From Myxococcus xanthus (GTDB lineage: Bacteria > Myxococcota > Myxococcia > Myxococcales > Myxococcaceae), in NCBI RefSeq assembly GCF_006402735.1, contig NZ_CP017174.1, forward strand, positions 4,095,001 to 4,159,000: a stretch of 64,000 nt of DNA. Reading direction: 5' to 3'. Numbering within the stretch: the stretch's first letter is position 1; the number at the start of each line of letters is the position of its first letter. Below are positions 5,939-25,022 of this stretch, in pieces. The position numbers were made by a program, and so were the translations under genes. The notes under the pieces are model-generated. The model did no database searches and had not been told where the DNA came from. It saw only the letters and a list, made by a program, of their open reading frames with translations.

Positions 5939-6083
5939 TTAATGCCGTGTTCCCTGGGCGCCGCGCGGTTGCCGTGGCGCCCGGGGGGACGCGCAAGCGC
6001 GGATCCGGTGACGGCGTGTCTCTGGCGCGCCTCCCGGATCGGCCGTGGGCGTTCTGTGAGCTGGCGCGGAAGGTCCGCACACT

Positions 6084-6821
6084 TCAGGGCGGCGGCGTGG
6101 AGAGCTGAAGACTCAGCCGAACGTTGTCCGAGCGCAGGCCCACCGGGGCATCCGGCGCGAGCGCCTCTTCGGGCACCTCGCCCGTCCACGCGAGCGTGTC
6201 GTCCGCCCAGACGCGGAGGACCTTGCCGTCGAGCTGGGCGCGCAGCGTGTGGGGCTCGCCTGTCGAGGGCGCTTCGAGCCGGACGTGCTGCTCGGGGTGC
6301 AGGATGGTGTAGCCCCGGTTGCCGCACTCGCGGCTGGTGTGCTGTCCCGGGTTGCGCTTGAAGTTGACGACGATGCCCGGCTTGGGTGCCAGCCGCCACA
6401 TCGCGTACAGCACGTTGCAGGCATCCACCGCGAAGAGCTTGAGACCCACCTGCTGGCGCTGCTCCCCCGATGCCAGGGCCACCTGGCGATCAGTGGGGCC
6501 TAGAATGGTGAAGCGCAGCGCCACGTTGCTCGTCGTGCTCCCTGGGACGATGGCGCGCATGCGCGGCCCGTCGACGAGGAACTGCTCGCCGGGGCCGGGC
6601 TCCAGGCTTCCTTCAGTGACCGTCAGTCGGGACAACGGGACGCGCGTCAGCATGGGCCTGCCTTTCTTCCGGTGAGCCCCTGGGAGGTGCGGCTCATCCC
6701 GTTCCTTCGGCGCGAGCCGTTGCCCCATACCGCCATCCCGGCCTCCATCCGCCGGACTGGAGCCGGCGCCTAGCAGCGCGGCCAGGACGCCGCAGCCCAC
6801 GATCAGCCGGCGCGGTGTCAC
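6084..6821 (-). CDS. periplasmic jelly-roll (LamG/DUF1080-like) protein of polysaccharide operon
   Basis: A 245-residue protein with a hydrophobic N-terminus and a small-residue cleavage zone about residues 18-25, so probably exported. The rest is beta-rich. The C-terminal pattern (LRAQLDGKVLRVWADD, then PVGLRSDNVRLSLQL) matches the end of concanavalin-A-like LamG or 3-keto-disaccharide hydrolase-type folds, which bind sugars. It starts at a GTG overlapping the stop of the upstream gene by 4 bp (GTGA), so its translation is coupled to the TolC-like protein. It is the last gene of the glycan operon. A sugar-binding or polymer-processing role is inferred from fold and context. Confidence 0.55.
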   Translation of the reverse strand: MTPRRLIVGCGVLAALLGAGSSPADGGRDGGMGQRLAPKERDEPHLPGAHRKKGRPMLTRVPLSRLTVTEGSLEPGPGEQFLVDGPRMRAIVPGSTTSNVALRFTILGPTDRQVALASGEQRQQVGLKLFAVDACNVLYAMWRLAPKPGIVVNFKRNPGQHTSRECGNRGYTILHPEQHVRLEAPSTGEPHTLRAQLDGKVLRVWADDTLAWTGEVPEEALAPDAPVGLRSDNVRLSLQLSTPPP

Positions 6822-7957
6822 GGCGACCGGGCACCCAGGAAGGACTGAAGCGATTCCACATGGGCACGCAAATAGGCCTGCTCCGCGCGCAGACGGGTGA
6901 GTTCCATCATCAGGTAGCCGCGGAAGCGGCGAATCTCCCGCGTCTGGAGCGCGTCCATGGACTGGAGCTGCGCTTCCAGGTCCGACACCAGGGTGCTCAC
7001 CTCACGCAGCCGGCCCTCCTCGGTGCGGTGGACGGTACGCAGCTCGGCGACCAGCTCGTTGATCCGCTGGGGCACGCCCGACACGTCATCGAGCGTCGCG
7101 CGGCGGCGGCCCTCCCTCGCCCGTGCGTTGGCCGAGCCCTGCCACAGGTGGCCCAGGTTGTAGGACAGCGTGAGCTGCCCGAAGAGGGGCAGGTTCTGGT
7201 CGACGTCGATGAGCTCGTCGTACCCACCGCGCACGTTGATGCGCCAGGCGCGCGAGCGGCGCAGCGCACCGTTATACGCCTCGAGCTGGTCATCCGCGGC
7301 TCGCAGCTCGTTCAGCACGCTCTCCAGCCGCTGACCTTCTTGAAACGAAGGCCGGGCCGCCAGCCGCTCGCGAGCAATCTGTGTGTTGCTAGAGAGCTGT
7401 CGCAGCCCATCCAGCCGGACCTGCACCGCGTTCAGCTCCTCCAGCGTCACCATGCCCTGCTTCATGTCGTTGCGAAGCGACGTGAGCAACGCCTCGGCGT
7501 GGGGCAGCGCCTCCTCCAGCACGCGAGCCCGCGCCTCCAGCGCGGCCTGTTCGCCCAGGCCGCTGCCCTGGCGGATGGCGGACTCCAGCACCGTCACCGC
7601 GCGTTGCCGGCGGCACTCCGCTTCCGCGCGCTTGTGGATGGTACGGCCGCGGTAGATGCCCAGGAAGTCGTACATCAACCCCGCCGTCACACGCGGGGTG
7701 GGCTCACCCAGCGGCGTGGTGCCGGCGCCTCCGCTGGCTTCGCCCGCGTTGACCACGCCGAAGGCCCCGAACAGCTCGGGCGCCAGCTCGAGCGCGGCCT
7801 CCGCGCTGCCCACGCCGCGGACGAAGTCGCAGTAGCCGGCGGCCCGGTCCTCGCCGGACGGCGACGTGAGTTCTCCCGCGGGAGGAGGCGCCGGCTGGGC
7901 CAGCGCCATCCGCGCGGCGAGTGACAGCAATGCGCCACAAGTGACGGTCATCCGCAT
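6818..7957 (-). CDS. TolC-like outer membrane factor of polysaccharide operon
   Basis: A 379-residue exported protein with a signal peptide of about 20 residues ending in ALA. Long heptad-rich helices (residues 100-245 and 280-375) flank a strand-rich segment at about 245-280 (NVRGGYDELIDVDQNLPLF, then LTLSYNLGHL). That helix-strand-helix plan is typical of TolC-type outer membrane factors, which form a trimeric barrel plus periplasmic tunnel. The first barrel hairpin would be around residue 85-95 (RVTAGLMYDFLG). Upstream is a HlyD-like protein and a glycan synthase, so it is the likely outer membrane exit. It is somewhat short for TolC (usually above 420), so a reduced or atypical member is possible. 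Confidence 0.6.
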   Translation of the reverse strand: MRMTVTCGALLSLAARMALAQPAPPPAGELTSPSGEDRAAGYCDFVRGVGSAEAALELAPELFGAFGVVNAGEASGGAGTTPLGEPTPRVTAGLMYDFLGIYRGRTIHKRAEAECRRQRAVTVLESAIRQGSGLGEQAALEARARVLEEALPHAEALLTSLRNDMKQGMVTLEELNAVQVRLDGLRQLSSNTQIARERLAARPSFQEGQRLESVLNELRAADDQLEAYNGALRRSRAWRINVRGGYDELIDVDQNLPLFGQLTLSYNLGHLWQGSANARAREGRRRATLDDVSGVPQRINELVAELRTVHRTEEGRLREVSTLVSDLEAQLQSMDALQTREIRRFRGYLMMELTRLRAEQAYLRAHVESLQSFLGARSP

Positions 7958-8008
7958 AGTCGAGTGTCTCCGGCTCCGAGGCCGTCTCCAGGCAAAGGGG
8001 GGTGGGAC

Positions 8009-9109
8009 TCACAGCAGCAGCGGCGGCCGGCCCAGGTGGAGCAGGTCTTGCCGGGCGGAAGGAGCGTCCGACAGTTGGACCTCCACCATGACGCCGCGGA
8101 GCATGTACTGGCGGATGGGGTGCTTGAGGGACACCTCACCCTCGAGCACGCGCCCGATGACGCCCACCTCGTGGCACCAGAAAACACTGGCCGCGCACGA
8201 GTACAGCGGCGTGCCCTGCTCGGCGTTCGGGATGTTCTCGTACGGGACGAAGGCGACCGTGAGGTCCTTCTCGATGGCCTTGAGGTACGGCGACGCACGC
8301 AGCGACGCAATCAGCGTGTCGTAGCGCAGGGCCACCTCGTCCAGGGCGGCCAGGTCCGTCTGGAGGCTCTTCAGCGTCGCCTCCGCGCGGGCCTGCTCCA
8401 GGACGGAGTGCGTGTACTCGCGCTCCAGCAGCAGCACGTCGGACGTCATGCCCTGGGGCGTCTCGTCCTTGCCCATGCCGGACTGCACCGCCGAGAGGCC
8501 GGCAATCTCCCGCTGGAGCGAATCCAGCCGCGTCTCCAGGTCCGCCGAGGACTGCGCCAGTGACAGGTTGCTCTGCGCCAGCTGCGCCAGGTGGTGGTTG
8601 ATGGTGAGCTTCTCCTCCTGCTCCATCAGGCGCGCGTCGTACAGCGCGTCGGTGCGCGTGCGCGCCAGTCCGGCGTAGGCGCGGTTGGACTGGAGAATCT
8701 CCGCCCGGGCGTTGCTGTACTCACGCCGCAGCAACGACAGGCGCCGTGCCACCCGGTCCTTGGCGTCGCGCTCGCCGCGCAGGGCGACGAGGAAGCGCTG
8801 CTGGAACGCGCGCTCCGCGGCGATGGAGCGCTCGGCGTCGGCGATGCGGTTCTCCACCGACCGACGGTCCGACAACACGTGGTCGCGCGCGGACGTCTGC
8901 GCGGCCACCTGGGTATTGAGCGTGAGAATCTGTGGGTCCGTCGGCGAGATGACCGTGGGTGTCACCCAGCTGCGGCTCACCAGGAAGAAGCCCTGGACGG
9001 ACAGGAAGGACACCAGCCCGAGCATGATGAGCGTGAGCAGCAGGGAACCGATGAACTTGTAGGCCGAGACGGCGATGCTGTTGACGCGATTGGCGACGCG
9101 TTGGTTCAT
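8009..9109 (-). CDS. HlyD-like inner membrane coiled-coil protein of polysaccharide operon
   Basis: A 366-residue protein with one N-terminal transmembrane helix (about residues 17-45). A long coiled coil (60-255) follows, then a beta-rich C-terminus (265-366) resembling the barrel of membrane fusion proteins such as HlyD, or Alg44 without its PilZ domain. Its ATG overlaps the stop of the glycosyltransferase by 4 bp (ATGA). It would bridge the inner membrane synthase and the TolC-like protein across the periplasm. No PilZ or other cyclic-di-GMP motif is visible. Two Cys residues near 307 and 313 in the barrel part could form a disulfide. Confidence 0.65.
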   Translation of the reverse strand: MNQRVANRVNSIAVSAYKFIGSLLLTLIMLGLVSFLSVQGFFLVSRSWVTPTVISPTDPQILTLNTQVAAQTSARDHVLSDRRSVENRIADAERSIAAERAFQQRFLVALRGERDAKDRVARRLSLLRREYSNARAEILQSNRAYAGLARTRTDALYDARLMEQEEKLTINHHLAQLAQSNLSLAQSSADLETRLDSLQREIAGLSAVQSGMGKDETPQGMTSDVLLLEREYTHSVLEQARAEATLKSLQTDLAALDEVALRYDTLIASLRASPYLKAIEKDLTVAFVPYENIPNAEQGTPLYSCAASVFWCHEVGVIGRVLEGEVSLKHPIRQYMLRGVMVEVQLSDAPSARQDLLHLGRPPLLL

Positions 9110-10359
9110 GGTGTAGTGCCCTCACCAGCATGGGTGGGAGGAAAGCGGCCCCCGGAGTCGGCCGGCGACGTCTCGGGAGCGGTGTTGGCGCTGCCCCGTG
9201 TCTCCCAACTCCCCGAGTCCAGCGTCAGAAGTGCCAGCGGTGTGAAGAGCGCGTACGTCACCGGCATCAGCAGGGCCATGGGCAGGAAGCTGGCGCCGTG
9301 GACCCGGCGGTCCGCGGGAAGGTGCCGCGTTTCGATTCGATAGATGACTCCCAGCAATCCGATGATGAGGAAGTGGAAGGCGAGGATGTCCCAGAACTCG
9401 CCGGTCAGGACGTTGTGCACGATGACCAGCGGGTAGGAGAGGAGCAGCGCGAGCTGTGACACGTAGTGGACCGTCACCACCGGATGGAGCCGCCAGGCGT
9501 GTGACAGGCCGCCCAGCAGGTCCACCAGGTTGGAGCGGCGCCACCGGAGTTGCTGGGAGAAGTACCCGGCCAGCGTCGACGGCGCGGCGGTGAAGCAGAA
9601 GGCGTCCAGCGTGTAGACCGTCTCGTAGTCGTGCTTGACGATCTGCCGCGTGAGGAACCGGTCCTCGCCGTACTTGATGGGGATGCCCGCGATGGCTCGC
9701 GCCTCGAGGATGGGCTCCAGCTCCAGCAGCACGTGGCGGCGGTACGCGGTGAGGCAGCCCGACAGGCACATCACCTGGCGGAAGCTGCGCTCCAGGTCCT
9801 TGAGCCACTCCTGGGCGAAGTGGAACTTGATTTCAATCATCCGCGTCATCCAGTTGTGATGACGGTTCGTCACGTAGGTGCGGCCGCCCACCGCGGCGAT
9901 GCGCGGGCTGACGAAGCGGCGCACCAACTGGCGGACGGCGGCCTTGTCGACGATGACGTCCGAGTCCACCGAGACGATGATTTCCGCGTCCGTGGCGGCC
10001 TTCACCGCGCGGTTGATGCCCTTGCGCTTGCCCATGTTCTCCGGGTTGCGCATGACGATGACGTTGGGATTTCCCTCCGCCGCCTTCAGTGCCCAGGCGT
10101 AGCTGTCATCCTTGGAGCAGTCATCCACCACCACGATTTGCAGCAGGTGGCTGGGATAGTCCTGCTCCAGGAGACTGCGAACGCCGTGGTAGATGCCTTC
10201 GCCTTCGTTGAACAGCGGGATGACGATGGCGACTCGTGGGAGGTAGGTGTCGTCGACTCTGTCGAACTGCCGCCCCTTCAGGCGCCGTAGCAATGGCCCG
10301 AGGACATAGCGGTTCATCAGAACCACCATGAAAAGTAACTGAATTGGAAAGAGCTCCAT
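9106..10359 (-). CDS. processive family-2 glycosyltransferase (NodC/hyaluronan synthase/Alg8-like)
   Basis: A 417-residue polysaccharide synthase. The GT2 motifs are all visible: VVDDCSKDD around residue 80, DSD at 132-134 for metal/nucleotide-sugar binding, GEDR at 231-234 with the catalytic acid, and QQLRW at 269-273, the hallmark of processive enzymes. A short hydrophobic N-terminus and at least four C-terminal membrane helices (290-380) form the translocation channel. The motif set is closest to NodC, HAS and Alg8. It is the first gene of a four-gene operon with HlyD-like, TolC-like and jelly-roll proteins. The polymer made cannot be read from sequence. Confidence 0.9.
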   Translation of the reverse strand: MELFPIQLLFMVVLMNRYVLGPLLRRLKGRQFDRVDDTYLPRVAIVIPLFNEGEGIYHGVRSLLEQDYPSHLLQIVVVDDCSKDDSYAWALKAAEGNPNVIVMRNPENMGKRKGINRAVKAATDAEIIVSVDSDVIVDKAAVRQLVRRFVSPRIAAVGGRTYVTNRHHNWMTRMIEIKFHFAQEWLKDLERSFRQVMCLSGCLTAYRRHVLLELEPILEARAIAGIPIKYGEDRFLTRQIVKHDYETVYTLDAFCFTAAPSTLAGYFSQQLRWRRSNLVDLLGGLSHAWRLHPVVTVHYVSQLALLLSYPLVIVHNVLTGEFWDILAFHFLIIGLLGVIYRIETRHLPADRRVHGASFLPMALLMPVTYALFTPLALLTLDSGSWETRGSANTAPETSPADSGGRFPPTHAGEGTTP

Positions 10360-15273: not shown

Positions 15274-15451
15274 GAATTCCCCTTTTGTGAGACGGTGATG
15301 CGTTCCCAGGATAGCCAGAGAACGCGTCAATGGCACCCGGGGGCTGCGGACTGTCGGAATGCCAACGGGCCTGCTCGGCCTGTCGACGAGGTGCCCGTGG
15401 GGGGAAGAGCACCGCTTCGTGGCGGATGCCCTTCATCGTGAGGTCCGCGGG

Positions 15452-15706
15452 CTATGTCTGGATGGTGTTCATGACATTGATGGGCAATAGGAGATTGAAG
15501 ACCAGTGCCTCCGGCACGTGCGTGCTGTCAGGGTTCAGCGCCAGGTAGCGGGCAATGTCTCGGGCCTGCCGCAGTTGGATGGCGTCGCCGACGGCGCGGA
15601 TGTCCTGGAAAAAGCTGTCCACCACCGCGCGCAGCTTGCTGTCATTGAACAAGTATGAGTCCCGGCTCCTCGCCTGCTGGGCAGTAGCGCGGCGATCATC
15701 GGCCAT
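15452..15706 (-). pseudogene. 3' fragment of an unknown gene
   Basis: An 84-residue open frame at the left edge of the accessory island. The C-terminal 65 residues look like real helical protein (LRAVVDSFFQDIRAVGDAIQ, then ARYLALNPDSTHVPEALVF). No convincing start or ribosome site is present, and the AT-richer gene upstream ends only about 100 bases away. It is best read as the surviving end of a longer gene cut by insertion of the island, but a short intact gene cannot be excluded. Confidence 0.35.
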
Positions 15707-15806
15707 GCACTGCGATTGCACTGGGAGATAGGCAGCGTCGGGGCGGAAACCCTTGTCACCCCGGGCACGAAGATCGACTGAAGTGATCAGGCAAGGGCTG
15801 GGGCGG

Positions 15807-16781
15807 CTACTTTGGTGAAATGCGCTGTAGCAGTTCCACGGCAGTTGCCTGTGGGAGCGGTTCCGCTTGTTCGACAGAGTACCCACTGGGCTGCGACGAG
15901 AAGATCGTACTCGCAGCCTGAGCTAGAATTGCGTCTTTGACTCGTTCGTTTGCCGCAGACGCCGCGAATACGCCGAACGTGCTAAGCGCAACTGACCTGT
16001 GCCTGTTGACGATGTAGTTGTGCCGACTTGTTCTGTAGTTTCGAGCGCAGAGCGAGAGCGCGTAGAATGCGACCGACAAAACCAGGAACCTGGGAGCGTA
16101 TGCAAATATTGTCAGGGACATTGAGCCTTGTACAAGGGCCGCAGGAGTGTTTGCGCTGGCGAACCATGCGATCGCTGCGATAATTGTTGCTGCGACTGCG
16201 ACGCCGATGAGCCACTTGGTTGCGGAGTCTTTGTGCTCAATTGCTTCGTTGGCGAAGTGCTCTGACTGTCGGGCAATGACCGTATCTATGGAGAGCTTCT
16301 TGAGGTCGTCGGCAAGTTGTTCACATTCGACTCGCGTCTTCTTGACGGCCACCAGTTCGTTTTCGAGTTTTGACTGGGTGCTCTCGATGTTGGGGGATCT
16401 TTGCATCTCAAGGGCGATTATTGGGGCGGCGACTCTGTAGAGGGTGTTGTACTGGCTGCTTATTTCTTGGCTGTATGACTCTGGCGGGGTGGGGTTGGTT
16501 GTCGTCTTTCTGCTGCTGGGGGTTGTTAGGGTGGTAATTGCGCTGTGGATGCGACTCCTTAGTTCCTTGCTGGTTTTTGAGGGTATGTTGTTGATGTCTA
16601 TTGAGGCGATGGTCTTGAGGAGAGAGATGAGGTTGGTTAGGTCTGTCGTGGGGTCATGATCGGGGTCTGGCGTGCCGTCTCGTGTGATGGCGTTTTGAAT
16701 TTTCTCCATGTTGAGGTTGGAGATGTTTGATTCAAGGTGTTCGCGATAGTTGTTGTTGGGGTTGATTTGGTTGGTTGGCAT
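15807..16781 (-). CDS. membrane protein of unknown function with atypical base composition
   Basis: A 324-residue protein, notably richer in Asn, Thr, Ser and Ile than the neighbours because the DNA is visibly more AT-rich, a sign of recent transfer. Residues 1-110 are polar. A coiled-coil-like stretch (140-200) follows, then two or three membrane helices (about 203-225 and 232-262), and a polar C-terminus. The start at 16781 is the first ATG after the composition shift; a longer frame to 17042 looks non-coding. No known domain is recognised. The layout (polar sensor-like N-terminus, helix pair, short tail) is seen in some defence or stress membrane proteins, but no function is claimed. Confidence 0.6.
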   Translation of the reverse strand: MPTNQINPNNNYREHLESNISNLNMEKIQNAITRDGTPDPDHDPTTDLTNLISLLKTIASIDINNIPSKTSKELRSRIHSAITTLTTPSSRKTTTNPTPPESYSQEISSQYNTLYRVAAPIIALEMQRSPNIESTQSKLENELVAVKKTRVECEQLADDLKKLSIDTVIARQSEHFANEAIEHKDSATKWLIGVAVAATIIAAIAWFASANTPAALVQGSMSLTIFAYAPRFLVLSVAFYALSLCARNYRTSRHNYIVNRHRSVALSTFGVFAASAANERVKDAILAQAASTIFSSQPSGYSVEQAEPLPQATAVELLQRISPK

Positions 16782-17090
16782 GCGCGGAGCGTATCGCAGG
16801 CTGGTTTGGATGGCGAAGGGGTTGCGATTATTCGCTCCGCGACGCCCTCGTTCTCCGAAGTTTTTACCGTGTGCTTGCGAATGGGCCAACCCATGGTCCC
16901 GTGCCGTTGTGCCTCGGGTGGTTGCGCTCCTAGCTGGTTGCTTTCGCCAGCGACTCCTTGAGTTGTTTGTCCTTCCGCCCGATTGGGATGCAGGGCCGAC
17001 GAGGAGGATGGGGCACCCGAGGCTGGTGTGCTTCGCGTCCACCTTCCATCACACACATCTCGGGTGTCCACCGAACCGGGCCAAGCTCAG
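16782..17090. other. intergenic stretch in accessory island
   Basis: About 300 bases between the AT-richer membrane gene and the small broken operon that follows. Several open frames cross it, but none has a ribosome site or protein-like composition. I see no repeats or terminator. Confidence 0.4.
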
Positions 17091-17364
17091 AACGTGTACG
17101 ACTGCAACGCGGGGAGTGCTGGCGGGTGGCTTCCGTCGGATGCGTGGAAGGCCCAGGTGCTGACAGAAATCGTTTCCGGGCACCGCGGCGCGTCTGGGAA
17201 GTGGGCGGTGCGCGTGGTGCTGGAGGTTCTCCGTTGAACTGGGTGTTGCGTGGGATGGCGTCGCGAAACGCGACGTCACCTGCCCGAAATGCAGCGACGC
17301 TGGCTGCGTAACTCAGGGCCGGTGCGACGACCCGGAGGTCTTCTTCGGAGGCATTGGGCGATGA
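17091..17364 (+). pseudogene. frameshifted small zinc-ribbon-like protein gene
   Basis: Two frames read as one protein if a single base is removed near 17233-17235. The first frame gives a segment ending WAVRVVLEVLR then a stop. The next frame continues as ELGVAWDGVAKRDVTCPKC and goes on through further Cys residues to GGIGR-stop. The join would give a 90-residue protein with a CxxC...C...C pattern typical of a small zinc ribbon. The start is uncertain (a GTG at 17094 is possible). Its stop overlaps the next ATG by 4 bp (ATGA), as in an operon, which supports that it was once a real gene. Confidence 0.45.
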
Positions 17365-17486
17365 ATGACGTGGTCGCGTATGTCCTCATCACGCAGGGGG
17401 TCCTTCGCATCCTCTGGATTTGGAGTCTTCGCCTCAGACTTCAGAAGCTGGTGCGCCAGCAGGGGGATGCGCGCGAGGCGGCATGA
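17361..17486 (+). CDS. 41-residue small membrane-type protein
   Basis: A very short frame starting at an ATG that overlaps the previous stop and ending in a TGA that overlaps the next ATG, both by 4 bp. It encodes one hydrophobic helix (VVAYVLITQGVLRILWIW) followed by a basic tail. The tight two-sided overlap argues for a real co-translated gene. It resembles small prophage or plasmid membrane proteins in style, but no family is assigned. Confidence 0.4.
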   Translation: MNDVVAYVLITQGVLRILWIWSLRLRLQKLVRQQGDAREAA

Positions 17487-17617
17487 GGGCCTACTACGTA
17501 CCCGAGACAGGCGACGCATGCATCCCTCGGCGGTTCAACTTCCGTGGCGACGGCATGCGCGACGGACACAGGCTGGTTGCGGCCAACAGCTCCCGACGCT
17601 GCTCAGTGGGAACGACG
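17483..17617 (+). pseudogene. 5' fragment of an unknown gene
   Basis: Third gene of the small overlapping cluster. The first 40-45 residues (starting MRAYYVPETGDACIPRRF) look protein-like. Beyond about 17617 the frame runs through the oppositely oriented membrane protein gene and loses coding character. It is probably a gene truncated by a rearrangement. No domain recognised. Confidence 0.3.
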
Positions 17618-18334
17618 TCAGGAGGCCGATGCCTGAGTCGATGCGTTCCTGTCTTTGGAGATCGAAGACATCGCAATAGCTTTGTCGAAACTCAGCATCG
17701 GCTGGCCGTGACGAGCGATTGGTCCCAAGTCATCCCAAATCCTCTTGGTGGTGGCCACCAATTCGTCGTGACGCTCTTTGCTGGGAAAACGCTCACTCCC
17801 GACTTGGAGAGTGCCTGCTGGGTGCATTTTGTGCAGAGAGCGGAACGTCTTGTGGCCGGACAGGAGCGACGAACGTAGCACCCAAAGAGAATCAACACCC
17901 ATGAGGAGTTTTTCTGGGAGGTGCAGTGCGGCAAGTCCCCAGGACTCCAGGAGCGCGTCGCTTGCAGTCTCGATGCGATGGCGAGTACCGGAAGTGCGAC
18001 GGTCGTAGTGCTCGCCCGGAGAGAGGTGATGTGCATCCTTCTCGTTGGTTTCTCCATGCTTGTCGCTGTGGGGCGTGCCTATCAGAGCCGCGATGTCGGC
18101 TGGCAAGCATAGTGCCTCCAGTTCGCGAAATAGGCGGAATGACGCGACCCAAAGATGCTGGGCTGCCTCGCCGCGCCTCTCATCTGCCTTCGACGCGCGA
18201 AACGAGGCTAGTTCATTGGGGACGACGCTCCATGCCGTCCAGATGGCCGCAATGACCGCTCCGAGGGCACCAAGACCGCCCGCCAAGGATCCGACGGTAT
18301 CGAGGATGTTCCGTAAGCTTTCGGCATCGTCCAT
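17618..18334 (-). CDS. membrane-anchored protein of unknown function
   Basis: A 238-residue protein with one N-terminal transmembrane helix (about residues 14-38) and a long polar, mainly helical cytoplasmic part. No catalytic motif is recognised. Its ATG lies inside a perfect inverted repeat at 18331-18349, which could be an operator or an mRNA hairpin over the start. It is divergent from the HIRAN-domain gene. Base composition is lower in GC than the core genes. Sited in the accessory island; a defence or regulatory function is possible but not shown. Confidence 0.6.
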   Translation of the reverse strand: MDDAESLRNILDTVGSLAGGLGALGAVIAAIWTAWSVVPNELASFRASKADERRGEAAQHLWVASFRLFRELEALCLPADIAALIGTPHSDKHGETNEKDAHHLSPGEHYDRRTSGTRHRIETASDALLESWGLAALHLPEKLLMGVDSLWVLRSSLLSGHKTFRSLHKMHPAGTLQVGSERFPSKERHDELVATTKRIWDDLGPIARHGQPMLSFDKAIAMSSISKDRNASTQASAS

Positions 18335-18349
18335 AGCGTGACGCTATGG
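18331..18349. promoter_or_regulatory. 8-bp-arm inverted repeat over a start codon
   Basis: CCATAGCG and CGCTATGG are separated by TGA. The left arm contains the start codon of the minus-strand membrane protein. In DNA it could bind a dimer; in mRNA the hairpin would hide the start. Confidence 0.4.
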
Positions 18350-18559
18350 CTGCCACCTACGTCACGCCACTGCTTGAGAGGGGCACCCGAGGAGGGGCTT
18401 GCTAGCTGCCGCCTGTGCGGCCAGCCCTTGGGATCCTGTGCCCGAGGCTTCCCTTTCGAACTCTGCCAAACGCGCGGAGATGGCGGGCCATGCTGGACGT
18501 GTCGATTCCTGATTTCCTATGGTCGCCGACCTTTCGCTCAGCATGAGGTGGGACAGTCC

Positions 18560-19387
18560 ATGGAGTTGCTGTGCTTTCTCGGATCGTTTGCTTCGGCATG
18601 TGGCGTGTCTGTCTACCTTTTGGGGAAGTGGCTGAGCCGCCGCCGCGCTGCTGCTGCGTCCGCGCTGGCGCTGGTCACCACGCATCAGGGGAAGCTGACA
18701 TCCTTGCCGCGCGGGGCAGTGGTTGAGGTGGTCGGCGAGTCCCACTATCAGGAGACGCTGGAAGCCCTCTCCGAGGAGCGGACGGGCCGGAGCCAACGCA
18801 TCGCCACGACAGCCCACCTGGTGCGCGAGCGCGTCAACCGCTTCGACGAGAACGCCGTGGCCGTCGTCATCGAGGGACGCTTGGTGGGGTACCTGTCCCG
18901 GGCGGACGCGCTGGGGTTCCGTGCCCTCATTGAGGAGATGGAAGCACGTGGTGAGATTGCCGCCTGCGCCGCCACAATCGTTGGGGGCTGGTCCCGCGGG
19001 GAAAGGGGCAGCGGGAAGTTCGGCGTGAAGCTGGACGTCATGCACCCGGACAAGGCGCCCGCAGATGCCACCATTATCTCCCATGCGGTGACGGGGCTGT
19101 GGGAGGCGAAGGGGCCCGCCGGCCGGAGGAAAGTGGTCCAGCGCGCGCTGGAGTCGCTACGGACGGAGGATGCGAAGACGCAGCTCCTCAACGAGGCATC
19201 GTCTGTGGAGGTGGTGGCGGCGTTGGAGCAGTCTGCGGGCCTGAAGACGCCCGCCGCCAAGCGACGGAGGCTCCAAGCCGCGCTGGACGCATTGAGGGCG
19301 GACGAAGTGCCGGACGAGCTACAGCGCCAGCAGGTGGAGTGGTTGGAGGCGGCGCTCCGGGACCTCGACGCGCCGCCCGAAGCCTAG
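18560..19387 (+). CDS. membrane-anchored HIRAN-domain protein
   Basis: A 275-residue protein. Residues 1-20 form a membrane helix followed by a basic stop (KWLSRRR). Residues 55-150 form a HIRAN domain: GESHYQETLE, then a basic RVNRFDENAVAV segment, then GRLVGYLSRADALGFR. HIRAN domains bind DNA 3' ends and damaged DNA and occur in nucleases and remodelers such as HLTF. The C-terminus (190-275) is helical. The start at 18560 follows GAGGTGG; earlier in-frame starts lack a site and would add Cys-rich residues. A stand-alone HIRAN protein in an island next to transposons suggests a role in DNA repair or defence (inference). Confidence 0.7.
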   Translation: MELLCFLGSFASACGVSVYLLGKWLSRRRAAAASALALVTTHQGKLTSLPRGAVVEVVGESHYQETLEALSEERTGRSQRIATTAHLVRERVNRFDENAVAVVIEGRLVGYLSRADALGFRALIEEMEARGEIAACAATIVGGWSRGERGSGKFGVKLDVMHPDKAPADATIISHAVTGLWEAKGPAGRRKVVQRALESLRTEDAKTQLLNEASSVEVVAALEQSAGLKTPAAKRRRLQAALDALRADEVPDELQRQQVEWLEAALRDLDAPPEA

Positions 19388-19591
19388 CCTGGCACGTAGT
19401 TCCAGCGGGCATACGGCGCGCCTCTCATGCGCCTGCGTCCGCTGAGCGATACTGGAGTTGCGATGCCTGCTTGCTCTCAACCTGCCCAGTGCTCCGAGGC
19501 CGACTGCCGCAACGCGGCCGCGCCCCGGTGCGTATTCTGAAGTTGCCCCGGTTTCGTGGAGTCCCCCCCGCTGTGCGAAAAGGGTTCCACG

Positions 19592-19942
19592 ATGCCGAAG
19601 TCACGCCCCCCATACCCGCCGGAGTTCCGTGATCGGGTCGTCGAGCTGCTGAAGGCCGGCCGGTCCGGCAAGAGTCTCGCAAGAGAATTCGGTTGCACCG
19701 AGCAGAGCATCCGCAACTGGAAGAAGCAGTTGGAGGAGAGCTGCAGTGGCGCCCCCAGCAGCAACGGCGAGAGCAGGCCAGCACCCAGGGCGAGCAGTGC
19801 CGCCTCGGAGGAGCGAGCCGAACTCGAGCGGCTGCGGCGCGAGGTGCGGGTGCTGCGCGAGGAGCGCGACATCCTAAAAAAAGCTGCGGCCTGGTTCGCG
19901 CAGGAGTCCGTGGCGACGCCCAGGCGGCGTACCGACTCGTGA
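19592..19942 (+). CDS. IS3-family transposase OrfA
   Basis: A 116-residue protein with an N-terminal helix-turn-helix (YPPEFRDRVVELLKAG, then SLAREFGCTEQSIRNWKKQ) and a C-terminal leucine-zipper-like coil (residues 75-100). It binds the element's inverted repeats. A run of seven A followed by G at 19876-19883 is a classic slippery site for the -1 frameshift that fuses OrfA to OrfB, and the shift leads exactly into the orfB frame. The orfB downstream is disrupted, so full-length transposase cannot be made from this copy. Confidence 0.88.
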   Translation: MPKSRPPYPPEFRDRVVELLKAGRSGKSLAREFGCTEQSIRNWKKQLEESCSGAPSSNGESRPAPRASSAASEERAELERLRREVRVLREERDILKKAAAWFAQESVATPRRRTDS

Positions 19943-20057
19943 AGGCGAACCAGGCCGTCCACTGCATCACGACGCTCTGCCGTGTCTTGGAGGTGTCCGA
20001 GAGCGGCTACCACGCGTGGCGGACGCGCCTGCCCTCGAAGCGCGCGGTCGCTGACGC
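19882..20057 (+). pseudogene. 5' part of IS3-family transposase OrfB, split by IS21
   Basis: The -1 frame after the slippery site reads SCGLVRAGVRGDAQ, then ITTLCRVLEVSESGYHAW, the usual start of an IS3-family integrase. The frame is cut at 20057 by the IS21-family element. Joined to the part starting at 22628 it reads RAVADAGLSERIRAIH without a break. No catalytic residue is in this part. Confidence 0.85.
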
Positions 20058-20073
20058 CCTCAATGGTCACGTG

Positions 20074-20114
20074 AAAACCGGCCAAAGAGGGTCCCTTCAA
20101 AACCGGCCAAAGGG
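20074..20114. repeat. terminal repeats at left end of IS21-family element
   Basis: Two direct copies of AAAACCGGCCAAAG-type sequence at 20074-20090 and 20099-20114. IS21-family transposases bind several such repeats at each end. Confidence 0.85.
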
Positions 20115-20137
20115 AGAGGACCGAGACAGGAGGACTC

Positions 20138-20902
20138 CTACCCCGCGGACTCGGAGGTCCGCAACTCCATGGCCCCCTTGGTGCGCCAGCTGCGGGGACC
20201 GAATTGGACGACGTGGGCATGGTGCAGCAGACGGTCGAGCATGGCGGCCACGGCGGCGTTGTCCCCCAAGAGCTTCCCCCAGTCCTCCACTGGCCGGTTG
20301 GAGGTGATGAGGGTGGAAGCCTTCTCGTAGCGGCGCATGATGAGCTCGAGCAGGTCCTCGGCGGCGGTGGCCGGCAGCTTGCGCATGCCGAGGTCATCGA
20401 TGATGAGCAGAGGCGCGCCGGTGAGCGCATCGAGCTTCTGGCGTCGGGTGCCTTCGAGGCTTGCTTCGGCGAGCTCCTCGAGCAGGTGGTGCGCCTCGCG
20501 GTAGAGGACGCGATGGCCCTGGGACTGGATGACGGCGCGGCCGAGGGCCTGGGCGATGTGACTCTTGCCGGTGCCTGGAGGGCCAAGGAAGAGCGCGTCC
20601 TCGCGCCGCTCCACGAAGCCGCCGGTGGCCAGCTCGAAGACGAGGCGGCGATTCATCTTCTTGTTGAAGTCGAAGTCGAAGCCGTCGAGCGTCTTGCCCG
20701 CGTCGCGGAAGGCGCCCTGCTTGAGGCGGCGTTGGATGAAGCTGTCGCTTCTGCGAGTCAACTCGTCGTTGACGAGGGCGGAGAGGAAGTCGAGTGGAGC
20801 GAGCTTCTCGGCTTGCGCCTGGAGGATGCGGGCCTCGACGGCCTGGGCCATGCCGGACAGGCGCAAGGTGGTGAGGGCGCGGGTGATTTCGACGAGATTC
20901 AT
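20138..20902 (-). CDS. istB: IstB-like ATPase of IS21-family element
   Basis: A 254-residue AAA+ ATPase that helps IstA choose and activate target DNA. A helical N-terminal domain (1-75) is followed by the Walker A motif GPPGTGKSH around residue 105, Walker B LLIIDDLGM around 165, and a sensor region STLITSNRP. Length fits IstB (about 250). It starts at an ATG overlapping the istA stop by 4 bp, typical of the family's translational coupling. Confidence 0.95.
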   Translation of the reverse strand: MNLVEITRALTTLRLSGMAQAVEARILQAQAEKLAPLDFLSALVNDELTRRSDSFIQRRLKQGAFRDAGKTLDGFDFDFNKKMNRRLVFELATGGFVERREDALFLGPPGTGKSHIAQALGRAVIQSQGHRVLYREAHHLLEELAEASLEGTRRQKLDALTGAPLLIIDDLGMRKLPATAAEDLLELIMRRYEKASTLITSNRPVEDWGKLLGDNAAVAAMLDRLLHHAHVVQFGPRSWRTKGAMELRTSESAG

Positions 20903-22533
20903 GTCTCGGTGTCTCCTGGGTGAGGGGTGGGTTGAGTCAGACGGACGATGACGTCGCGGTAGTGGGTGAGCTCGCGGATGAGCGGGTCGACCTGGCGCAG
21001 GGTGACGGGAGTGGGCGTGCGTCTTTCGAGGTAGCGGCGCACGAAGCGGTAGGTGGGGACGCCCACCTCGAGAGCCACCTCGCAGGCGTCGTCCAGGGCA
21101 GCGGCGCCGTGCTTCTTCACCAGGGACAGCACGCCCAGGATGCGGCGGGTGCCCACCTCTCCTTCTCGGCGGTGCACCTCGGCGCAAAGGGCGGCGACGC
21201 CGCGTCCGGCCCTGGCGGCGCGCTCGAGAAGTTGCACGGTGGTGCGCGGCGCGTGGGAAGGCCTGTCCTCCTCGCGTGTGCGGTGGTGGCCGCGAGGGGC
21301 CCGGGTGTGCTCCCGGAGCAGTTGCCCCGTAGCGGGCAGCAGCAGGCGGACGTGGAGGCTGTCCCACTGCACGTGCAGCTTGCGGCCGATGTGTCCCGGG
21401 GGCACCGAGTAGTACGCGCCGTCCACCTCGACGTGCCCGTCCAGGTGCACCACTCGCTCACCGTAGGCGTAGTAGCGGAAGGGCTCCACGGGCAGGGCCA
21501 GCAGCCATGGGCGCTCCTCGCCGAACATGGCGGCCACCTGGCGCTTGGTGGTGCCGTGGATTCGGGTGTCCGCCCACTTCGCCTCCCACGCGTCGAGGTA
21601 GACCTGGGCGGCCTCCAGCGACTCGAAGCGCAGGCCCTTCAGCGGCGTGCGCTGCGCGTGGCCCACCGCAGACTCCACCTTCCCCTTCCTGTCCGGGTGG
21701 CGGACTCGGGCCGGCAGGGCCGTGGCCCCGTAGTGGGCCAGCACGTCCCGGAAGAGCGGATTGAGGGCCGGCTCGTAGACGTCGGGCGAAAGCACCCCCT
21801 CACGCAGGTTGTCCAGCACCACCGTGCGCGTCACGCCTCCCAGCCGCCGGAAGGCCTCCTCGTGCAACTGCGCCCACGCGCGGCTGGAGGACTTCCAGCA
21901 CAACAGCCGCACTGACTTGCGGCTGTAGCCCAGCGTCATGACGAACATGCGCGTGCGCCGGTATTTCCCCGTCTCCGGGTGGCGCACCATGGGCCCCTCC
22001 CCATAGTCCACCTGCGCTTCCTCGCCCGGCGTTGTGTGGATGACGGCCTTGGCCTCCGGGCCCTGGCTGTCGCGCAACGCCCGGACGAAGCGGCGCACGC
22101 TAATGTAGCTGCCCGTGTAGCCCTGCGTGTCGACGAGCTCCTCGTAGATGGCGCGCCCGTTGCGGCCCACCTCCAGCCGCTGCCGCACCAGCTCGACGTA
22201 GGGCGCGACGATGCTCGCCGATACGTGCCGGACTCCGGCTCGGCTGCGCGGCATGGAGTCGGTGGTCCCCTCATTGGCCGGTTTTGCTCCGGCGGCCTCG
22301 GCCTCCGGCTCACTCGCCTCGGTGGTCCCCTCATTGGCCGGTTTTGACTTGCCCCACCGGCGCGGTGGACGGATGCCCACGCCCGCGGCCTTCAGGTAGC
22401 CGCTGGCCGTCTCACGGCGCACCCCCGTCGCATCCTCGATACGTCTCAGACTCCAACCCAACCGCCCCAGGGCGATGACCTGCTGCTTCTTCTCGTCGCT
22501 CAAGACGTTGCCCATCCCCCGGGCGGACTCCAC
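20899..22533 (-). CDS. istA: IstA-like transposase of IS21-family element
   Basis: A 544-residue DDE transposase. It has an N-terminal helix-turn-helix (ALGRLGWSLRRIEDATGV, then ETASGYL). The catalytic core has Asp in QVDYGEG, Asp in VVLDNLREG and Glu in RKGKVESAVGH. A C-terminal beta-barrel follows. Residues about 60-95 contain the octapeptide KPANEGTT twice; the DNA encoding them is the same sequence as the element's terminal repeats, so the binding repeats extend into the gene. The assumed start is the ATG at 22533; a second in-frame Met at residue 7 is also possible. Confidence 0.93.
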   Translation of the reverse strand: MESARGMGNVLSDEKKQQVIALGRLGWSLRRIEDATGVRRETASGYLKAAGVGIRPPRRWGKSKPANEGTTEASEPEAEAAGAKPANEGTTDSMPRSRAGVRHVSASIVAPYVELVRQRLEVGRNGRAIYEELVDTQGYTGSYISVRRFVRALRDSQGPEAKAVIHTTPGEEAQVDYGEGPMVRHPETGKYRRTRMFVMTLGYSRKSVRLLCWKSSSRAWAQLHEEAFRRLGGVTRTVVLDNLREGVLSPDVYEPALNPLFRDVLAHYGATALPARVRHPDRKGKVESAVGHAQRTPLKGLRFESLEAAQVYLDAWEAKWADTRIHGTTKRQVAAMFGEERPWLLALPVEPFRYYAYGERVVHLDGHVEVDGAYYSVPPGHIGRKLHVQWDSLHVRLLLPATGQLLREHTRAPRGHHRTREEDRPSHAPRTTVQLLERAARAGRGVAALCAEVHRREGEVGTRRILGVLSLVKKHGAAALDDACEVALEVGVPTYRFVRRYLERRTPTPVTLRQVDPLIRELTHYRDVIVRLTQPTPHPGDTET

Positions 22534-22605
22534 GTCCTACCCGGGCGTCAACGTCTCGGCCCTCCCCATTGGCCGGTTTTCAGGGGACCTTCATTGGCTG
22601 GTTTT
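22259..22605. repeat. terminal-type repeats at right end and inside istA
   Basis: Four copies of the CCCCTCATTGGCCGGTTTT-type repeat, in opposite orientation to the left end. Two are 28-bp identical blocks inside istA (22259-22286 and 22319-22346). One is at 22564-22580, and a variant is at 22591-22605. Only the last two are outside the coding frame. Confidence 0.85.
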
Positions 22606-22627
22606 GGGTGACCACTGAGGCTGACGC

Positions 22628-23357
22628 GGGCCTCAGCGAGCGCATTCGCGCCATCCACGCGATGAGCGACGGCACCTACGGCGTGCCGCGCATCCACGCC
22701 GAGCTCGCGGCGGAGGGCGTGCACATCGGCCGTAAGCGTGTCGCCCGTCTCATGCGGGCAGCTCGCCTCGAAGGCGTCAGTCGCCGCAGGTGGTGTGTCA
22801 CAACGACGCGCGACGAGCGCGTACGCCCTGCTCCCGACCTGGTCGACCGCAAATTCGTGGCCCCTGGACCCGACCAGCTCTGGGTTGCTGACATCACGTA
22901 CATCCCGACGCACGCCGGCTTCCTCTACCTCGCCGTTGTGCTCGACGCCTGGAGCCGCAAAGTCGTCGGCTGGGCAATGGCTGGCCACCTCAAGACGCAG
23001 CTCGTCGTGCAGGCACTCGACATGGCTGTGGGGCAGCGTCAGCCCCAGAGCGTCGTGCACCACAGCGACCAAGGGACGCAGTACACCTCGATTGGCTTCG
23101 GGCTTCGGTGCAAGGAAGCCGGCGTGCGGCCCTCCATGGGCAGCGTTGGCGACGCGTACGACAACGCGATGTGTGAGAGCTTCTTCGCCACACTCGAGTG
23201 CGAACTGCTCGCACGCCGCCGTTTCACGTCTCACGCCGAGGCGCGGATGGCCGTCTTCCGCTTCATCGAAGGCTGGTATAACCCGCTCAGGCGCCACTCC
23301 GCGCTCGACTACGAGTCACCCGCTGGTTACGAGAAGAAGCACCGCGCTGCCGCTTGA
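22628..23357 (+). pseudogene. 3' part of IS3-family transposase OrfB
   Basis: Continuation of the split OrfB. It contains the whole DDE core: Asp in WVADITYIP, Asp in VHHSDQGTQYTS and Glu in NAMCESFFATLE. It ends near the right inverted repeat. Without its first 60 residues and the OrfA fusion it is unlikely to work. An open frame that begins inside the IS21 end (22569) reads into this part, so some protein could be made. Confidence 0.88.
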
Positions 23358-23446
23358 GGGCGAAAGCGCGAAACGCTCTGCGGAACCGGGGCAACTTCAA
23401 TTCCGGTGATGGTGAGCACCTCAAGCGGGTGACGCGGGGCCGGTCG

Positions 23447-23701
23447 ATGTCAACGCCCCTGGCGCCGGCATATGTGTCCCCCTGGGAGCGCCTCACCGCC
23501 GCCGCCCTGGCCTACGCCGATGCCAGCGACGACGAGGAGGAGTTCGCCAAGGCCCGGGACAGGCTGCGCAAGGCGGCTATGGCCTACGCGCGCACCGCTC
23601 CGGCGCATCCGATGCCGCCCGCGCCATTTGCACCTCGGGTGCGCAAGGCGCGCACGCCGGGACAGCTTGAGTTGTGGCCAGGCCAGGCGGAGCGGCCGTA
23701 A
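23447..23701 (+). CDS. small acidic/Ala-rich protein of unknown function
   Basis: An 84-residue protein starting just outside the IS3 element. The N-terminal half is helical (WERLTAAALAYADASDDEEE, then ARDRLRKAAMAYAR) and the C-terminus is Pro-rich and basic. GC-rich coding bias supports a real gene. A ribosome site is not clear. Small proteins of this style are common in Mx-type prophages and plasmid-like islands, but I do not recognise a family. Confidence 0.45.
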   Translation: MSTPLAPAYVSPWERLTAAALAYADASDDEEEFAKARDRLRKAAMAYARTAPAHPMPPAPFAPRVRKARTPGQLELWPGQAERP

Positions 23702-23776
23702 GTCAACCGCAACCGCCTGGCACACGCGTTCATCGGAGAGCAGGCCAAGGGCACGACAGCCGTTGGCTGCTAAGGC

Positions 23777-24100
23777 TTAGCAGCACCAGCAACTCGTTTC
23801 GTTGCGGCAACAGCCGGCCGTGCAGTAGCAGTCCTGCGCCCCGTTTCTGGCTGAGCAACTCTTCCCGGGAGGCGGGGGAGGCGGGCGCGCCGAAGTCGAA
23901 TCCCCAGAGGCGTCGACGGCAGGGTTGGCGGCCATCGACAGCAGTTCCTCGCCTTCTTGCGACTCTGGCGCGAAGGTCGCCGCAGCGTCCTCACCCGAGA
24001 CAAAGCGGTCGATGGGCGTACCGTCGTTGAGGGACGCATTCCCACAGCCGACCATCACAGCAAACGCCACCGACAACAGCAGTGTGCGACCGACACTCAT
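23777..24100 (-). CDS. small Cys-rich lipoprotein
   Basis: A 107-residue predicted lipoprotein. The signal peptide ends in MVGC (Cys about 19). A polar linker with a polyproline run (PPPPPP) leads to a compact C-terminal Cys cluster with eight cysteines in about 24 residues (CYCTAGCC and CWCC segments), likely disulfide-rich or metal-binding. The start at 24100 follows GGAGGGG. A hairpin with 9-bp arms at 23766-23784 overlaps the stop and could end the transcript, though no T-run follows. It is the third Cys-bearing small lipoprotein in or beside this island. Confidence 0.65.
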   Translation of the reverse strand: MSVGRTLLLSVAFAVMVGCGNASLNDGTPIDRFVSGEDAAATFAPESQEGEELLSMAANPAVDASGDSTSARPPPPPPGKSCSARNGAQDCYCTAGCCRNETSCWCC

Positions 24101-24359
24101 ATTCCCCTCCCTGATTGAGTGCAGATGAGTCCGGGCCAATCCGCGAGGCTCGTCCGCAGACAACGGTGAAACGTCGTGGCGCACGTCCCTTGTGGGAATT
24201 CGCCCTCGTACTCCGGGGAGGGGTGGTGAGCGTCACCCGCTTCGGTGGCTCTCCCGCACTTCGTGTGGTTCCCCTCGGAGGAATGGGTAGATGCGGCAGA
24301 CGGCCAGCAGGGCGAATACACCCAGGGAATGGAAACGCTGTACTCCCTTCCTGGCTGTC

Positions 24360-24765
24360 GCGTGGAGCGGGTGATGCTCACCTGAACAGTGAGGACGCTC
24401 ACGTCGGTGTAGAAGCGCTGGGTTGTACGCTTGTCCTTGTGGTTGAGGAACTCAGGCACTAGGGGCGGCGCTGCGCCCTGTTCTACGCTCCAGGTCGTCA
24501 CCGAGTGGCGCATGACGCCGAAGGTGAAGGCGGGCACTCCAACTGCGACGCCGAGTGGGTCTGCCTCGAACCGCTCGAGCTGCTTCATGGCCAAACGGAG
24601 GTTGTGGCACCGCGTCGAGACATGGAACCGCTGCCCGCGAACGCGACGATCGATGATGAAGAGGGGCTGTCCATCCTGCTGCTTGTGGAAATAGCCGCCT
24701 GGCCAACGCTGCTTGCTGCTCACCGGCACCTCCGCCCACAAAGGTGCCACAACGGAGGCCGACAT
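24360..24765 (-). pseudogene. relic tyrosine recombinase (integrase) next to tRNA-Arg
   Basis: The start (residues 15-70) resembles the N-terminus of a phage-type integrase: GYFHKQQDGQPLFIIDRR, then RFHVSTRCHNLRLAMKQLER. The frame then jumps straight to the end of the catalytic domain: MRHSVTTWSVEQGAAPP, then LNHKDKRTTQRFY, with the RH motif and the final Tyr. About 200 residues between are missing, and the frame runs on without family resemblance to 24097. The tRNA-Arg 3' end lies within 10 bases of the start, the usual integrase/attachment-site arrangement. It marks the right end of an old integrative element. Confidence 0.7.
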
Positions 24766-24773
24766 GAATGCAG

Positions 24774-24847
24774 TGACCCCGACAGGAATCGAACCTGTGG
24801 CCTGCGGTTTAGGAAACCGCCGCTCTATCCAACTGAGCTACGGGGTC
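24774..24847 (-). tRNA. tRNA-Arg (anticodon CCU)
   Basis: The 74 bases fold into a cloverleaf on the minus strand. The acceptor stem is GACCCCG/CGGGGTC, D arm GCTC/GAGC, anticodon stem GCGGT/ACCGC around TTCCTAA, and T arm ACAGG/CCTGT around TTCGATT. The anticodon CCU reads AGG. No CCA is encoded. It is a likely integration site for the neighbouring island. Confidence 0.95.
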
Positions 24848-25022
24848 GTGCTCTCAAGTCACTGCGCTTTCTGGAGGAGGCCCGCCAGAAAGGTCCATCC
24901 ATGCTACCCAACGCGGGGGCGCATGCACAACGACGTGCGTTATAGCAGGCGGCCCGGCGCGCGCAACGCGCCAGCATCACCGTTTCCATCCTGCCGCCCC
25001 CTAGGGGCCCTGCCGGGCGCCC

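What the first reader, a model, noticed from the sequence alone, without database searches (positions are those of the whole stretch)
18560..19387. Stand-alone membrane HIRAN protein in the island
HIRAN domains normally sit inside nucleases or helicases. Here one is attached to an N-terminal membrane helix with a helical C-terminus, next to an unknown membrane protein and transposons. A membrane-bound sensor of broken or foreign DNA is an attractive but unproven idea.
Basis: inference. Interest (0 to 1): 0.55.

Follow-up and report, generated by a model that had tools for sequence, protein, structure and literature searches.

The report
Prophage membrane-anchored DNA-end-binding protein
A myxobacterium carries, in the remains of an old virus insertion, a gene for a membrane-anchored protein with a DNA-end-binding (HIRAN) domain; relatives recur in bacterial viruses, often beside their immunity switch, so it may help a resident virus guard the cell against incoming DNA, which is untested.

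Summary
The gene is real: 18560-19387(+), 275 aa, with an N-terminal membrane helix, a HIRAN domain and a helical C-terminal bundle, under purifying selection against its M. xanthus AM003 orthologue (dN/dS 0.19). The neighbouring "membrane protein" 17618-18334 is not shown to be a gene (dN/dS 0.93). The locus is a decayed prophage/island ending at tRNA-Arg.

The premise that HIRAN sits in helicases or nucleases fails here: a profile scan found 81 relatives in viral contigs, and 36 full-length relatives scanned show no nuclease or helicase domain. In 65 dereplicated viral loci, 31 have a terminal membrane helix (60 of 730 control genes); 22 have a repressor within two genes, 9 a tape-measure gene, 34 neither. 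In one phage group HIRAN is present in 5 and absent in 4 of 9 scorable slots behind a cI-like repressor. A pneumococcal prophage membrane HIRAN (ThaL) is already named, untested in what I read.

Best reading: prophage cargo holding a DNA-end binder at the cytoplasmic face of the inner membrane, most likely for superinfection exclusion. Anatomy and context are computed; DNA binding, location and exclusion are inferred.

The parts
18560..19387 (+). HIRAN gene, 275 aa: membrane helix + HIRAN + helical C-terminal bundle
   Evidence: ORF; Pfam HIRAN; dN/dS 0.19 vs AM003; AF2 model pLDDT 85.7
18566..18622 (+). predicted transmembrane helix, aa 3-21, followed by KWLSRRR (HIRAN predicted cytoplasmic)
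   Evidence: hydropathy; charge count done on the AM003 orthologue and 28 other N-anchored relatives
18692..19057 (+). HIRAN domain, about aa 45-166
19061..19369 (+). C-terminal five-helix bundle, aa 168-270, seen also in the AM003 and G107 orthologues; not searched for on its own
18545..18552 (+). putative ribosome-binding site GAGGTGGG
   Evidence: read from sequence
17634..19407 (.). stretch 90% identical to an AM003 contig, in another context there
17092..17237 (.). fragment matching a prophage gene of genome G018
19448..19528 (+). first part of a small prophage gene split by the IS; intact copies exist in other genomes
19529..23403 (.). IS3-type element (terminal repeats 19538-19561 / 23376-23399) holding an IS21-type element
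20058..22623 (.). IS21-type element, other near-identical copies in the genome
23404..23589 (+). second part of the split small prophage gene
24773..24847 (-). tRNA-Arg(CCT); its 3' end is the right edge of the variable region

Best explanation
The gene is prophage cargo, left in a decayed prophage remnant at a tRNA-Arg integration site. Its protein is held in the inner membrane by one N-terminal helix with the HIRAN domain on the cytoplasmic side. By analogy with solved HIRAN domains it would bind the 3' end of a DNA strand. Under the membrane of a lysogen it would catch the leading end of incoming linear phage DNA and hinder entry, circularisation or replication: superinfection exclusion. 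Shown by computation: the gene, its selection, the fold, the predicted anchor, the many phage relatives, and their link to repressor or tape-measure genes. Inferred: DNA binding, membrane location, expression in the lysogen, and exclusion itself.
For: Fold: lp_0118 Z 9.4 (rmsd 2.4, 92 aligned), HLTF HIRAN Z 8.4 (rmsd 2.6, 92 aligned); family profile hits HLTF at E 5e-7. Pocket: positions aligned with HLTF's N-x-aromatic-D are N93 and D96 in 36 of 36 chosen rows and F/Y/W/H at 95 in 34 of 36 (these positions were not part of the search pattern); HLTF Y93 stacks on DNA bases (PMC4666394 passage). Membrane: terminal helix in 31 of 65 viral relatives vs 60 of 730 genes of 100-350 aa on the same contigs, Fisher p 8e-15; K/R bias puts HIRAN inside in 25 of 29 N-anchored proteins (2 reverse, 2 ties). 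Immunity setting: repressor within two genes in 22 of 65 loci, 24 of 248 such genes vs 3 of 1011 further away; without seed proteins 17 vs 2, p 7e-11; upstream on the same strand in 18 loci. Independent library: phrog_4 repressor in 12 of 140 nearest neighbours, not among the 25 commonest families (so in at most 2) of 139 distant genes. Slot: HIRAN present in 5, absent in 4 of 9 loci with both a cI-like repressor and the anchor gene. RexA (Pfam E 6e-61) two genes after HIRAN and an S24 repressor before it in L116. Tape measure within two genes in 9 of 65. Window remnant beside matches to a terminase-bearing prophage.
Against: I found no experiment on any of these proteins; ThaL is named but no test of it appears in the passages I read. 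33 of 65 viral relatives have no predicted helix. 34 of 65 loci lie beside neither repressor nor tape measure. The window copy is not beside a repressor, no integrase was found in its remnant, and its expression is unknown. Integrases are not enriched near HIRAN: 3 of 248 vs 14 of 1011. At the place of HLTF Y72 (alignment recalled) this clade has H or N, so binding may differ; that residue was limited to H, N or R by the search pattern. Defence-model support in the neighbourhoods is thin.
Confidence: 0.45

Rival explanations
1. Anti-transformation guard. The membrane-held domain catches the 3' end of transforming single-stranded DNA as it emerges from the uptake channel, so that the prophage is not deleted by homologous recombination.
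For: Studied HIRAN domains bind ssDNA or dsDNA ends, HLTF's the 3' end (passages and a reference title); the named pneumococcal membrane HIRAN comes from a study of prophage deletion by transformation. That transforming ssDNA enters 3' end first, and that M. xanthus is transformable, are recalled.
Against: No test of ThaL in the passages read; hosts of most viral loci are unknown to me, so competence was not correlated.
Confidence: 0.15
2. Prophage state sensor. The protein senses DNA damage or foreign DNA at the membrane and feeds the repressor it is transcribed with, tuning induction.
For: Repressor upstream on the same strand in 18 of 65 loci; in another pneumococcal prophage a different lysogeny-module gene (szaL) affects activation by competence.
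Against: 9 of 65 copies lie by a tape-measure gene instead; HIRAN is absent from 4 of 9 comparable repressor loci.
Confidence: 0.15
3. Phage DNA replication or repair helper held at the membrane.
For: Authors assign HIRAN genes of Stenotrophomonas phages DLP4 and A1432 to the DNA module (passages).
Against: Those genes were not tested for belonging to this clade; here nearest neighbours are rich in repressor and tape-measure families, while ParB, methyltransferase, primase and helicase families lead among distant genes.
Confidence: 0.1
4. Part of a two-gene toxin/antitoxin or effector pair with the divergent frame 17618-18334.
For: Both lie on one 90% identical stretch in the window and AM003.
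Against: The partner frame shows no purifying selection and no homologue in the searches made; no match to it in the 19.5-kb G107 locus; no kinase or toxin family in the six window proteins scanned.
Confidence: 0.05

Closest known systems
[quoted passage not shown]
   Same: Membrane helix plus HIRAN in a prophage; a HIRAN protein lies between repressor and integrase in pneumococcal phages 11865 and IPP45; 39.6 bits to Pfam HIRAN
   Different: The 11865 protein has its helix at aa 106-124 and HIRAN at 214-271 and lacks the VGESxYQ motif; the window protein has the helix at aa 3-21, then HIRAN, then its own bundle. That the 11865 protein is ThaL is my inference from description, not accession
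lp_0118 of Lactobacillus plantarum (PDB 3k2y)
   Same: Stand-alone bacterial HIRAN fold, best structural match (Z 9.4)
   Different: Solved chain of 109 aa, called uncharacterized; no anchor in that chain
HLTF / Rad5 HIRAN domain
   Same: Fold and part of the end-binding pocket
   Different: Part of a eukaryotic helicase/ubiquitin ligase; no membrane helix
Membrane superinfection-exclusion proteins HK97 gp15, Sie2009, Ltp, P22 SieA (PMC10883804 passages)
   Different: No HIRAN is mentioned there; sequence relation not tested
SNIPE (PMC13190303 passages)
   Same: N-terminal membrane helix holding a cytoplasmic DNA-acting part at the site of injection
   Different: SNIPE has DUF4041 and a GIY-YIG nuclease; neither is matched here
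HipN/HipL HIRAN proteins (PMC8262856 passages) and PADLOC PDC-M03B
   Same: Bacterial HIRAN proposed to meet phage DNA ends
   Different: Those go with Hip kinases; none matched here; PDC-M03B only E 0.042

Membership tests
HIRAN domain family (PF08797) | profile match at the curated cut-off | tested here: inconclusive
   window protein 21.0 bits (domain alone 22.9) vs 24.7; AM003 orthologue 25.9 passes; 32 of 36 full-length relatives match at E<=0.001
HIRAN domain family (PF08797) | HIRAN beta-barrel fold | tested here: met
   predicted model: Z 9.4 to 3k2y, 8.4 to 4xzg and 4s0n; Foldseek ranks 3k2y and HLTF HIRAN first
HIRAN domain family (PF08797) | binds DNA ends | not testable with these tools
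   pocket positions N93/F95/D96 kept; no assay
ThaL-type prophage membrane HIRAN | transmembrane helix plus HIRAN | tested here: met
   predictions only
ThaL-type prophage membrane HIRAN | lies in a lysogeny module beside the repressor | tested here: not met
   no repressor among the neighbouring window proteins scanned, no integrase by tblastn in 15400-24900; 22 of 65 viral relatives do have a repressor nearby
Superinfection-exclusion membrane proteins | prophage-encoded membrane protein | tested here: met
   flanks match a prophage with terminase genes; predicted helix
Superinfection-exclusion membrane proteins | blocks entry of superinfecting phage DNA | not testable with these tools
   needs plaque and DNA-entry assays
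[quoted passage not shown]
   no such Pfam match at E<=1
HipN/HipL or PDC-M03 systems | adjacent Hip-type kinase | tested here: not met
   no kinase family in the window neighbours scanned; PDC-M03B only E 0.042

The most novel reading that the evidence does not exclude
Membrane-tethered stand-alone HIRAN proteins are a widespread, convergently anchored class of prophage guard: a nuclease-free trap for DNA ends at the inner membrane that stops incoming linear DNA (phage or transforming) at entry, encoded in interchangeable slots beside cI-type repressors and tape-measure genes, with the myxobacterial version adding a helical bundle of unknown role.
Probability: 0.3. Interest if true: 0.8.

Novelty: new variant of a known kind. 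Interest (0 to 1): 0.5.

Why it matters
If true, a domain known from eukaryotic fork remodelling would be used by prophages as a DNA-end trap at the membrane: a self/non-self rule based on place and on free ends rather than on sequence or modification. It would suggest a function for a phage gene family whose PHROG matches are all 'unknown function' (for the nine HIRAN proteins of the ten proteins scanned). Even if the function proves different, the recurrent anchoring and the repressor slot make it directly testable.

Tried and rejected
Rejected: (1) the longer GTG start at 18338: a 5-nt indel against AM003 lies in it. (2) A two-gene system with 17618-18334. (3) A defence-island reading: PADLOC matched the three window proteins scanned no better than E 0.0067. 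(4) Integrase linkage: 3 of 248 near vs 14 of 1011 far. (5) A second copy of the tRNA 3' end inside the window: none found; AM003 has a 46-bp copy with an integrase homologue nearby (27% identity, E 1e-18). (6) A known phage close to the G018 prophage: none at megablast sensitivity. (7) The C-terminal bundle has only middling matches to common helical arrangements; no relation is claimed, and it was not folded alone. (8) L133's HIRAN protein had no match in the phage collection, and the 165-aa gene in the same slot of phage AbIPP1 showed no similarity to it.

Limits: genes on viral contigs were called by a simple longest-ORF script, starts by a Shine-Dalgarno score, helices by a Kyte-Doolittle threshold; relatives used chosen starts, controls the longest ORF. 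Some starts are doubtful (L087 gains a helix with a longer start; L118's short hydrophobic start is missed). Seeds for the repressor, integrase and tape-measure counts came partly from near genes; only the repressor count was repeated without seeds. Dereplication was at 85% HIRAN identity, so related phages (L133, L134, L135, L138) count apart. The PHROG and PADLOC neighbour sets hold 140 of 230 candidate genes from 41 of 66 loci, one of them a plasmid; the distant set 139 genes from the same 41. Only the 25 commonest families are shown in such scans. The viral scan used the pattern [VI]VGES[HNR]YQ, so constancy of those residues is by construction, and 80 of 81 loci were kept. In one search repressor identity ranged from 24 to 100%; 4 of 13 loci without a recognised cI were dropped, of which 1 holds the HIRAN motif and 3 do not; four of the five HIRAN-bearing loci are contigs already known. 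Alignment A3 holds 36 rows of 41 considered (one search lists 40 besides the window; L006, L075, L099, L117, L121 left out).

Full report
What is there. The window is 64 kb of a 9.32-Mb single-contig genome of the genus of M. xanthus AM003. ORF 18560-19387(+) encodes 275 aa: a hydrophobic helix at aa 3-21 followed by KWLSRRR, a HIRAN domain, and a helical C-terminus. AlphaFold2 on a 36-row alignment gave mean pLDDT 85.7 with a helix at 2-40, a barrel at about 45-160 and five helices at 168-270. The barrel matches L. plantarum lp_0118 (3k2y, Z 9.4, rmsd 2.4 over 92) and human HLTF HIRAN (4xzg, Z 8.4, rmsd 2.6 over 92); Foldseek ranks the same entries first. Pfam HIRAN scores 21.0 bits, under its 24.7 cut-off, but the AM003 orthologue passes (25.9), 14 of 14 domain relatives match at E<=0.01, and the family profile finds HLTF at E 5e-7.

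Is it a gene? Against AM003 (88% aa) changes fall 24/16/66 on codon positions, dN/dS 0.19. Against a third myxobacterial copy (G107, 299 aa, 54% aa identity) they fall 104/81/175. The C-terminal part is the least changed versus AM003 (9.0% of nucleotides, 22 of 30 at third positions). The gene is rare: 2 of 100 genomes (own included); with the family profile 4 of 195 genomes of the phylum (own included).

The supposed partner. The frame 17618-18334(-) is open in AM003 too, but its 52 changes fall 20/16/16, dN/dS 0.93. It is in 2 of 100 genomes, the own one and AM003; no close relative was found in viral contigs, none by tblastn in plasmids, none in the G107 locus; it folds poorly from two sequences (pLDDT 46). 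It may be real, but nothing here shows it.

The setting. Left of the gene the match to relatives ends at about 15.4-15.7 kb in five genomes, except that G006 also shares 15662-17035 (90%); the match resumes at 24770-24774, the 3' end of tRNA-Arg(CCT). In AM003 the left flank runs into a 46-bp copy of the tRNA end with an integrase homologue nearby, so the site has been used for integration. Window pieces 17092-17237 and 19448-19528 plus 23404-23589 match a prophage of G018 that has terminase large and small subunit genes and a DUF4055 gene, which I take for the portal. The second piece is a small gene split by an IS3-type element that itself holds an IS21-type element. In AM003 the same small gene follows the HIRAN gene after about 0.86 kb, which holds another frame with a membrane helix. 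In G018 an unrelated-looking frame lies upstream of the small gene on the other strand (no profile run), and in genome G110 that region holds an HTH-M78 protein. So the HIRAN gene seems to sit in a variable cargo place of a decayed prophage; this is a reading of a few genomes.

Relatives. A profile scan of viral contigs gave 81 relatives, 80 kept; one search lists 94 HIRAN frames from the loci given to it. Of 36 full-length proteins (29 viral) Pfam at E<=0.001 finds HIRAN in 32 and otherwise one match to Tmemb_55A: no helicase or nuclease. After dereplication 65 phage or viral loci remain: 25 with an N-terminal helix, 6 C-terminal, 1 internal, 33 none. Terminal helices: 31 of 65 against 60 of 730 genes of 100-350 aa on the same contigs (Fisher p 8e-15). 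Several of the 33 start with short amphipathic stretches such as MGLLEWLFGK; this is my reading and has no control. The charge rule puts the HIRAN side inside in 25 of 29 N-anchored proteins, 2 the reverse, 2 ties.

Context. A repressor of XRE/CI type lies within two genes in 22 of 65 loci: 24 of 248 such genes against 3 of 1011 further away; leaving out seeds, 17 against 2 (p 7e-11); in 18 loci it is upstream on the same strand. PHROGs of 140 nearest neighbours phrog_4 repressors; in 139 distant genes no repressor family is among the 25 commonest. A tape-measure gene lies within two genes in 9 of 65 (seeds came from near genes and this count was not repeated without them); in L101 the gene two before is a tail assembly chaperone. 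Integrases are not enriched. 34 of 65 loci show neither repressor nor tape measure. In L116 the order is S24-type repressor, HIRAN, one gene, RexA (Pfam E 6e-61), all on one strand. In Psychrobacter-like phages the repressor before HIRAN has HTH and S24 domains; of 13 loci with the anchor gene, 9 also have a recognisable cI, and HIRAN is present in 5 and absent in 4 of these (of the other four, one has the HIRAN motif). Phage Psymv2 lacks it, and phage AbIPP1 has an unrelated gene there. Pneumococcal phages 11865 and IPP45 (two of seven Streptococcus phages matched) have repressor, HIRAN protein, integrase in a row on one strand. Nostoc phage Nsp-JY10 has HIRAN beside an XRE gene on the other strand. 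Arthrobacter phage Vulpecula is reported to have a HIRAN gene that appears absent from other AS1 phages (PMC10927666 passage).

Mechanism. HIRAN domains bind DNA ends (PMC8262856, passages and one section); HLTF Y93 stacks on bases (PMC4666394 passage). The aligned N-x-aromatic-D positions are kept in 36, 34 and 36 of 36 rows. HLTF Y72 seems replaced by H (23) or N (13); that alignment is recalled, and the search pattern allowed only H, N or R there. Membrane exclusion proteins of prophages block DNA injection (PMC10883804 passages), and SNIPE shows that a membrane-held protein can act on phage DNA as it enters (PMC13190303 passages). That HK97 gp15 lies next to the tape-measure gene is recalled. 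Together, the likeliest role is to hold a DNA-end binder at the entry site in lysogens. Each functional step is inferred.

What is in print. [quoted passage not shown] I saw no test of it. Other HIRAN proteins are tied to HipA kinases and to defence neighbourhoods (PMC8262856, PMC11706625 passages), and to two-gene neighbourhoods with ARPP (PMC9503650 passage). In the listings I saw for 'HIRAN domain' (40 of 113 papers), HIRAN with anti-phage/bacteria/defense (20 of 1,191), HIRAN with superinfection/prophage (12 of 966), thaL (1 of 1) and HIRAN with transmembrane and phage (9 of 9), no title points to a study of membrane HIRAN proteins as a family; most of these papers I saw only as listings, and the library lacks most subscription journals.

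Verdict. Observation partly confirmed; interpretation partly supported. The single locus is a rare prophage remnant; the interest lies in the family it reveals.

Noticed in passing
window 19529-23403: Nested insertion: an IS3-type element split by an IS21-type element of which five full-length near-identical copies lie elsewhere in the genome.
   Followed up: partly
L053 (G023 C311) about 5273-6600: AM003 carries a 46-bp copy of the tRNA-Arg 3' end with a tyrosine-integrase homologue nearby at the same chromosomal site.
   Followed up: partly
L116:6406-9668: S24-type repressor, membrane HIRAN, a 284-aa gene and a RexA homologue in one row on one strand.
   Followed up: yes
L008:849-9443: A Chloroflexi relative lies a few genes before a DNA methylase gene (Pfam N6_N4_Mtase at 6834-9443); one search shows a type III methyltransferase match in the pooled set.
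   Followed up: partly
L006:2812-3984: A Planctomycetota relative has HIRAN followed by what look like repeats and a DnaQ-type exonuclease start (IVDVETTGL, by eye), then masked bases.
   Followed up: no
L013:312-2393: An Amycolatopsis relative seems to carry two HIRAN-like stretches (by eye) and a membrane segment before them.
   Followed up: no
L051:4701-5321: AM003 has, just after its HIRAN gene and on the other strand, a frame with a membrane helix; no Pfam match.
   Followed up: partly
window 15810-17042(-): Frame with a C-terminal membrane segment; the DNA is also in G006 (90%) beside the same tRNA; no family match above cut-off for its 326-aa part.
   Followed up: no
window 23777-24184(-): Small frame with a lipoprotein-like start and a cysteine-rich end.
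   Followed up: no
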